Source: Candidatus Gastranaerophilales bacterium (GTDB lineage: Bacteria > Cyanobacteriota > Vampirovibrionia > Gastranaerophilales > Gastranaerophilaceae). Taken from it: a stretch of 64,000 nt of DNA. Positions 45,507 to 45,797 of this stretch are shown here, piece by piece. Location of the stretch: NCBI GenBank assembly GCA_944325575.1, contig CALVAR010000001.1, positions 62,001 to 126,000 on the forward strand, read 5' to 3'. The position numbers and the translations under genes are program-made. The notes under the pieces were generated by a model. The model was not told the origin of the DNA, did no database searches, and worked only from the letters and a program-made list of their open reading frames with translations. Numbering within the stretch: position 1 is the stretch's first letter; every line of letters starts with the position of its first letter.

Positions 45507-45558
45507 ACTCTGCCGAGGAAGAAATGACTAAATGTCATTTTTGAGGAGAGGAAGGTAG
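45507..45558 (+). repeat. Palindromic element, left copy
   Basis: The element contains ACTCTGCCGA, a hairpin ATGAC-TAAAT-GTCAT with flanking A/T pairs, TTGAGGAGAGG and GGTAG. It is an inverted copy of 45750-45797 on the other side of the tRNA. Stem bases differ between copies, but pairing is kept. Confidence 0.65.
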
Positions 45559-45605
45559 CGCAGCTACCGCAAGCAGTCCCGTAATAAAATTCAATATAAA
45601 GCCAC

Positions 45606-45677
45606 GGGCCTGTGGCGCAGCGGTAGCGCAGGGGACTCATAATCCCTTGGTCGTGGGTTCGAATCCCTCCGGGCCCA
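45606..45677 (+). tRNA. tRNA with CAU anticodon (Met, or Ile2 read after lysidine)
   Basis: The 72-base cloverleaf has acceptor arms GGGCCTG and CGGGCCC with discriminator A, D stem GCGC/GCGC, anticodon stem GGGGA/TCCCT around CTCATAA, variable loop TGGTC, and T arm GTGGG-TTCGAAT-CCCTC. The T stem has one U-U mismatch at its second pair. CCA is not encoded. Anticodon CAU can belong to elongator Met or to Ile2, where TilS converts C34 to lysidine; GACTCATAATC followed by TTGGTCG resembles bacterial Ile2 tRNAs. A terminator follows at 45688. Confidence 0.85.
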
Positions 45678-45766
45678 AATTTAAAAGACTTCCTTCGGGA
45701 AGTTTTTTTATGGGTTCGAACCGCAAATTTTCTTCGAAAATTCTGGGTTCTACCTCTCAAATAATA
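45667..45766 (+). repeat. 100-bp direct repeat, copy A (tRNA 3' end plus terminator)
   Basis: The repeat starts with the last 11 bases of the tRNA and includes the terminator hairpin, a GGTTCGAACC segment and the first part of the palindromic element. Copy B at 45798-45898 differs by only two substitutions and one inserted base. Confidence 0.8.
45688..45709 (+). terminator. tRNA terminator
   Basis: ACTTCC-TTCG-GGAAGT stem with a UUCG tetraloop, followed by seven T, 10 bp after the tRNA. Confidence 0.85.
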
Positions 45767-45797
45767 TGACATTTAGTCATATTATTTTCGGCAGAGT
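45750..45797 (-). repeat. Palindromic element, right copy (inverted)
   Basis: Read on the minus strand this gives ACTCTGCCGA, a 12-bp perfect hairpin AAATAATATGAC-TAAAT- with its complement, then TTGAGAGGTAG. It mirrors the left copy at 45507-45558 across the tRNA. Confidence 0.7.

What the first reader, a model, noticed from the sequence alone, without database searches (positions are those of the whole stretch)
45507..45797. Inverted palindromic element on both sides of a tRNA, with compensatory stem changes
The left (45507-45558) and right (45750-45797) copies share ACTCTGCCGA, the hairpin core ATGAC-TAAAT-GTCAT and a TTGAG..GAGG..GGTAG end. Outside the core the stems differ (GAAATGAC on the left, TAATATGAC on the right), yet each pairs with its own partner arm. 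Paired substitutions imply selection for the hairpin or a replication mechanism that needs it, as in REP/REPIN-type or other small mobile palindromes. A half copy ends the second direct repeat.
Basis: seen in the sequence. Interest (0 to 1): 0.7.

Follow-up and report, generated by a model that had tools for sequence, protein, structure and literature searches.

The report
Hairpin element nesting at tRNA ends
A small DNA hairpin, kept paired by matching changes on both arms, occurs in dozens of copies in a family of gut bacteria and sits mostly at the ends of tRNA genes, next to an extra copy of the gene's end and with the gene itself intact.

Summary
The palindrome is a 36-50 nt hairpin "core", ACTCTGCCGA-stem-GAGAG (usually 44 nt), with strong compensatory stem changes. 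It is multicopy in the window's genome, in 23 of 23 genus members and, by covariance model, in 108 of 146 genomes of the family. Named hits are mostly Candidatus Gastranaerophilales. It is not randomly placed: 102 of 159 distinct cores lie within 400 nt of a tRNA or tmRNA gene, and 97 of those 102 point at the gene. The bases before the core usually copy that gene's own end (153 of 187). In 46 of 46 distinct gene-target contexts the next gene base is G. Past each core come tRNA-like sense and often antisense pieces, then the intact gene. The same core also fills a slot in other palindromic intergenic repeats. The RAYT/REP reading is only partly supported: Y1 genes exist but do not track the core, carry their own GTAG repeats, and the core lacks a consistent GTAG tag. 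Best reading: a mobile mosaic foldback element at RNA-gene ends whose insertion leaves a complete gene. The enzyme is unidentified. Six literature searches found no description.

The parts
45366..45393 (+). probable native promoter of the tRNA (TTGACC-N16-ATACTT), now about 210 nt from the tRNA
   Evidence: the same TTGACCATGC motif lies close to the tRNA in relatives without elements (L091, L101, L105, L106). Promoter reading by recalled sigma-70 consensus.
45496..45506 (+). T5: extra copy of the first 11 nt of the tRNA (GGGCCTGTGGC)
   Evidence: identical to 45606-45616
45507..45550 (+). 5' unit hairpin core
45551..45570 (+). second hairpin GGTAGC-GCA-GCTACC plus GC; last 8 nt antisense to tRNA 45620-45627
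45574..45582 (+). antisense of the tRNA 5' end (CAGTCCCGT; 8 of 9 pairs with ACGGGCCTG)
   Evidence: paired with T5 in the DNA fold
45583..45605 (+). AT-rich right end of the unit and gene-adjacent CCAC
   Evidence: this copy is a weak match to the box seen in relatives
45606..45677 (+). intact tRNA, anticodon CAT (probably Ile2)
45678..45709 (+). terminator-like hairpin with T run
45712..45724 (+). antisense of tRNA T-arm (GGGTTCGAACCGC)
45726..45742 (+). second hairpin AATTTTC-TTC-GAAAATT of the 3' unit
45754..45797 (-). 3' unit hairpin core
45798..45808 (-). copy of the tRNA 3' end (CTCCGGACCCA on +, 10 of 11 with 45667-45677)
45809..45840 (+). second copy of the terminator-like hairpin
   Evidence: family D1
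45843..45898 (-). truncated second 3' unit ending in a half core (45886-45898)

Best explanation
A miniature mosaic foldback element. SHOWN: a structure-constrained hairpin core, dispersed and polymorphic between relatives, sits immediately 5' of a G at a few discrete positions near either end of tRNA and tmRNA genes, on the strand that makes it face the gene. The gene end before the insertion point is present twice and the gene itself is complete; arrays mix different insertion offsets. The core also alternates with short loops or other hairpins at fixed slots in other palindromic repeats. INFERRED: the core enters single-stranded, hairpin-forming DNA. At RNA genes insertion happens together with local re-copying of the gene end, partly in inverted orientation, as a replication strand switch at the tRNA palindrome would give; or the survivors are those in which the end was re-copied, since otherwise the gene would be lost. 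Constraint acts mainly on DNA structure, because the 3' units lie beyond the terminator and on the other strand. An enzyme acting in trans is likely but not identified.
For: Covariation. Copies in 23 of 23 genus members and 108 of 146 family genomes. Association: 102 of 159 distinct cores within 400 nt of a tRNA/tmRNA (29 more at contig edges, 28 not); 97 of 102 face the gene. About 1.7% would be expected from 37 tRNAs in 2.02 Mb (own arithmetic). Gene end copied before the core in 153 of 187 pairs; offsets 6-8, 11-12, 17-20, 26 nt from the 5' end and 8-15 nt from the 3' end. +1 base G in 46 of 46 contexts, C or G at -1 in 42. tRNA locus across the genus: 4 of 21 loci empty on both sides, 16 with a 5' core, 11 with a 3' core, counting 3 truncated by contig ends. 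G008 (filled) against G022 (empty): an 18-nt direct repeat flanks the unit. Arrays with mixed offsets 11, 18, 11 (L329). Own-gene antisense of 8 nt or more in 48% of 100 5' units against 9% for other isotypes; 82% of 39 3' units against 28%. Core-filled and core-less versions of the same intergenic repeats.
Against: No mobilising enzyme found; Y1, reverse transcriptase (PF00078) and IS110 transposase do not track the core. Half of the 5' units lack 8 nt or more of antisense. The three-way fold is only modestly above controls: all three helices in 55 of 94 5' units against 242 of 470 with a swapped end; in 22 of 36 3' units against 91 of 180, while shuffled tails give 78 of 108. 28 of 159 cores have no tRNA near. 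Many adjacent units are identical, so plain tandem duplication explains part of the copy number. In the intergenic repeats the core often replaces a few bases rather than adding cleanly, and many 'empty-like' hits are chance matches. No movement was observed.
Confidence: 0.5

Rival explanations
1. REP/REPIN-type element mobilised in trans by the genome's Y1 (RAYT) transposase.
For: Y1 genes in the own genome and 49 of 146 family genomes; imperfect hairpins; GTAG after the core in 90 of 309 copies; 4 of 32 Y1 loci hold a core, and in G001 a Y1 unit lies inside a core apex.
Against: Y1 absent in core-rich genomes (G005, G013, G022); co-occurrence p 0.32; Y1 genes inspected have other GTAG palindromes beside them; no consistent GTAG tag, and it lies at the 3' rather than the 5' foot (polarity of classical REPs recalled).
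Confidence: 0.2
2. RNA-level device: the upstream units form structured leaders (decoy tRNA 5' half plus antisense) that tune processing or folding of the tRNA; hairpins are kept by RNA selection.
For: 5' units lie between a probable native promoter and the tRNA; antisense matches the own tRNA; fold of leader plus tRNA is far below shuffles (z -4.3).
Against: Mirror-image 3' units lie on the other strand beyond a terminator-like hairpin; relatives without any unit exist; the same core sits in non-RNA intergenic repeats; the predicted leader fold pairs the two gene-end copies with each other and would disturb the tRNA.
Confidence: 0.12
3. No mobility: old partial tRNA duplications with a hairpin, inherited and expanded by replication slippage, and homogenised by recombination.
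For: Many adjacent units identical (L102); presence across much of the family; no enzyme needed.
Against: Same core at tRNAs of many isotypes plus tmRNA, mixed offsets in one array, G at +1 in 46 of 46 contexts, gene-facing orientation, core-filled and core-less intergenic repeats, dispersed copies of one core allele in G001 and G006 (part of these spread inside larger repeats).
Confidence: 0.18

Closest known systems
GTAG-tagged REP elements and RAYTs (PMC3733652: abstract and section 'GTAG families' read)
   Same: Short imperfect palindromes, multicopy, compensatory stem changes, Y1 genes in the same genomes
   Different: No consistent GTAG tag; RNA-gene ends are the main site; gene ends copied; no Y1 link; Y1 genes carry their own GTAG repeats
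Integrase-borne islands and satellites at tRNA genes (recalled)
   Same: Insertion within an RNA gene, the gene left complete by a carried or duplicated end
   Different: About 100 nt, no integrase, acts at both the 5' and the 3' end, tandem arrays
Rickettsia palindromic elements (recalled; papers seen only in the listing)
   Same: Small palindromes able to enter genes
   Different: Those enter reading frames; this one sits at RNA-gene ends and keeps the gene separate
IS200/IS605-derived miniature elements (recalled)
   Same: Hairpin ends, single-strand logic, insertion 3' of a fixed sequence, guide-like pairing
   Different: No tetranucleotide target (only C/G before G), no recognisable second end in all contexts

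Membership tests
GTAG REP | GTAG tag at one end in most members | tested here: not met
   GTAG follows the core in 90 of 309 distinct copies
GTAG REP | short palindrome with compensatory stem changes, multicopy | tested here: met
   length 36-50, mostly 44, slightly above the 20-40 bp in PMC3733652
GTAG REP | associated RAYT gene flanked by the same repeat | tested here: not met
   own contig-9 Y1 flanked by GTAGGGTGCAATTTATTGCACC; a core lies nearby but belongs to the tRNA-Gln 3' unit; no co-occurrence
REPIN | two inverted REP units with a short spacer as the mobile unit | tested here: inconclusive
   inverted core pairs occur (this window; L263) but many cores are single or tandem in one direction
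IS200/IS605-type miniature element | insertion 3' of a fixed tetranucleotide | tested here: not met
   only +1 G (46 of 46) and C/G at -1 (42 of 46) are shared
Integrase-type tRNA insertion | encoded site-specific recombinase | tested here: not met
   units of about 80-130 nt without coding capacity
Integrase-type tRNA insertion | duplicated gene end, intact gene | tested here: met
Rickettsia palindromic element | in-frame insertion into protein genes | not tested
   no systematic search of coding sequences for cores

The most novel reading that the evidence does not exclude
A homing system in which a tiny element carries a DNA (or RNA) guide antisense to the end of one RNA gene: the guide pairs with the gene end, the hairpin core marks the cut 5' of a G, and insertion supplies a new gene end, so the element can settle in essential tRNA genes without cost and re-adapt its guide from each new host gene.
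Probability: 0.15. Interest if true: 0.88.

Novelty: new variant of a known kind. Interest (0 to 1): 0.62.

Why it matters
It would show a way for a selfish or structural hairpin to live inside essential RNA genes of bacteria by leaving the gene complete, at both ends and on both strands. Polymorphic empty, single and array states in close relatives make insertion, duplication and target choice directly testable. It also explains assembly breaks and false reading frames around tRNA genes in this group.

Tried and rejected
Rfam: nothing but tRNA reaches its gathering score over the element; only tRNA, tmRNA and SRP RNA in neighbouring loci. Protein coding: the open frames over the element are antisense readings of tRNA and hairpin. 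Phage cargo: pattern absent from viral contigs. SRP RNA as a target was dropped: the core on contig 3 has a tRNA-Pro-like end before it at a contig edge. The AT-rich box TTGAMAATTWAATA ahead of the gene was first read as a promoter; its distance to the gene varies from 1 nt upward, so this was dropped. Reverse transcriptase: 65 of 146 genomes, none in the own genome. IS110: 8 of 146, none in the own genome. Three-way-junction fold: weak against controls. Literature searches (listings only, except PMC3733652 as stated) found no account of tRNA-end palindromes in this group; only the top 10 of 27 papers were seen, Mendelian-randomisation studies in which the word is used of genotypes.

Full report
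What is there. The window's tRNA with anticodon CAT (45606-45677) is flanked by two copies of one hairpin in inverted orientation, 45507-45550 (+) and 45754-45797 (-). The core is ACTCTGCCGA, a stem of about 12 pairs with a short loop (TAAAT in most), then GAGAG.

Is it real? Yes. Both cores fold better than shuffles as DNA. The 41 distinct 44-mers taken from loci fetched by then show strong covariation: 8 stem pairs with changes on both sides and a score of 0.341 against 0.098 for shuffles and at most 0.112 for slid structures. Other apical loops occur with the same frame (GATTGAGTATC, GCCGGTGGC and others), so structure rather than sequence is kept in the stem.

How widespread? In the window's genome a covariance model finds 25 cores at E<=1e-6; a looser setting gives 68 at E<=0.01. 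The exact pattern is in 23 of 23 genus members searched, 4 of 13 other genomes of the family, and 0 of 23 outside the family. The model is in 108 of 146 family genomes and 33 of 41 genera. Viral contigs: none.

Where does it sit? In all 114 loci of that scan, which was not chosen for tRNAs, 102 of 159 distinct cores lie within 400 nt of a tRNA or tmRNA; 29 more are within 300 nt of a locus edge and 28 have none near. An earlier count on 80 of the 114 loci gave 70 of 108. The own genome has 37 tRNA matches in 2.02 Mb, so under 2% would be expected. Of the 102, 78 are upstream on the gene's strand and 19 downstream on the other strand: 97 face the gene. Isotypes include Met/Ile, Pro, Lys, Val, Leu, Gln, Ile, Arg, Glu, Cys and Thr, plus tmRNA.

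Grammar of a unit. In 153 of 187 core-gene pairs the bases directly before the core equal the end of that gene at 85% or better; the other 34 have decayed or differently annotated ends. Offsets are discrete: 6-8, 11-12, 17-20 or 26 nt from the 5' end, and 8-15 nt from the 3' end. The gene base after the insertion point is G in 46 of 46 distinct contexts and the base before is C or G in 42; background for that pair is 22%. After the core a 5' unit runs through a piece resembling the gene's continuation, often an inverted copy, an AT-rich box, and then the intact gene. A match of 8 nt or more antisense to the own gene end occurs in 48% of 100 5' units against 9% for other isotypes, and in 82% of 39 3' units against 28%. 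The strict box is in 46 of 100 tails against 0.1 expected in shuffles. The window's 5' unit folds as DNA with the gene-end copy paired to its antisense, the core, and a second hairpin. Across units this fold is only modestly above controls for 5' units and not above shuffled tails for 3' units, so I do not rest on it.

Dynamics. At this tRNA, 21 of 23 genus genomes gave a locus with the full-length tRNA match. Four are empty on both sides (L091, L101, L105, L106), 16 carry a 5' core and 11 a 3' core, counting one 5' and two 3' cores cut by contig ends. Two adjacent identical units occur, for example L102. In G008 against the empty G022, the unit is bracketed by ACGTCACGGGCCTGTGGC; both genomes share the GTCAC variant before the tRNA, so the repeat looks local. 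Arrays at tRNA-Val mix offsets (11, 18, 11 in L329; 11, 18, 18 in L129), which plain tandem copying would not give. Similar units with other hairpins in place of the core occur at tRNA-Val(TAC), Arg(CCG) and Leu(CAA) of the own genome.

Outside RNA genes. Cores also sit at fixed slots in several intergenic palindromic repeats. For example ...TTTTGCG[core]GTAGACCCCATG... has core-less counterparts ...TTTTGCGGAAGTGACCCCATG..., and ...TCATTCTGAGC[core]GGCGAAGAATCT... has ...TCATTCTGAGGGCTTTAGCCCGAAGAATCT..., where another hairpin fills the slot. I read these by eye: the automatic tally (89 of 96 hosts, some of them RNA-gene ends cut by contig edges) includes many chance matches and should not be used as a rate.

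Which enzyme? Y1 transposase genes: three in the own genome, 49 of 146 family genomes, absent from core-rich G005, G013 and G022; co-occurrence 39/10/69/28, p 0.32 (the four counts were read off lists that are partly truncated). The contig-9 Y1 gene is flanked by GTAGGGTGCAATTTATTGCACC palindromes. In G001 a Y1 gene with GTAG palindromes lies inside the apex of a core at tRNA-Phe, so cores can be targets of such elements. Four of 32 Y1 loci hold a core, above the few per cent expected, but at least two of the four belong to tRNA units. Reverse transcriptase and IS110 families are absent from the own genome.

Verdict. The REP/RAYT assignment fails two defining features tested here. The new point is the tie to RNA-gene ends: gene-facing orientation, G after the junction, a copied gene end, and a mirror-image arrangement at the 3' end. 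I take a mosaic foldback element at RNA-gene ends as most likely (0.5), with the enzyme and the origin of the copied and inverted gene pieces unproven.

Noticed in passing
L229 (G001 contig 7), about 1140-2240: A Y1 transposase gene with GTAG palindromes sits inside the apex of a core hairpin in a tRNA-Phe 3' array.
   Followed up: partly
L121/L089 (G000 contig 9, Y1 at 55497-55847): RAYT-like gene flanked on both sides by GTAGGGTGCAATTTATTGCACC palindromes, a candidate REP family of its own.
   Followed up: partly
L137 (tRNA-Val TAC), L139 (tRNA-Arg CCG), L140 (tRNA-Leu CAA): Units of copied tRNA 5' end, hairpin, antisense and AT box without the core (two or more in tandem at Val and Arg, one at Leu); the antisense is up to about 24 nt long.
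   Followed up: partly
L169-L172 (G000 contigs 1, 9, 9, 19): Four dispersed near-identical repeats with GAGAGCAGATATTT-like inverted ends that carry two adjacent hairpins, one of them a core; probably a MITE.
   Followed up: no
L133 (G000 contig 6, about 43.6 kb): Tandem 122-bp repeat with a core-like hairpin before a gene that looks like ribosomal protein S18 (by eye).
   Followed up: no
L276: A MAG labelled Muribaculaceae carries a Gastranaerophilales-type tRNA unit, perhaps a contaminating contig.
   Followed up: no
G000 contigs C3, C5, C8, C14, C27 ends: Several contigs end within about 130 nt of a core, so these arrays probably break short-read assemblies.
   Followed up: no
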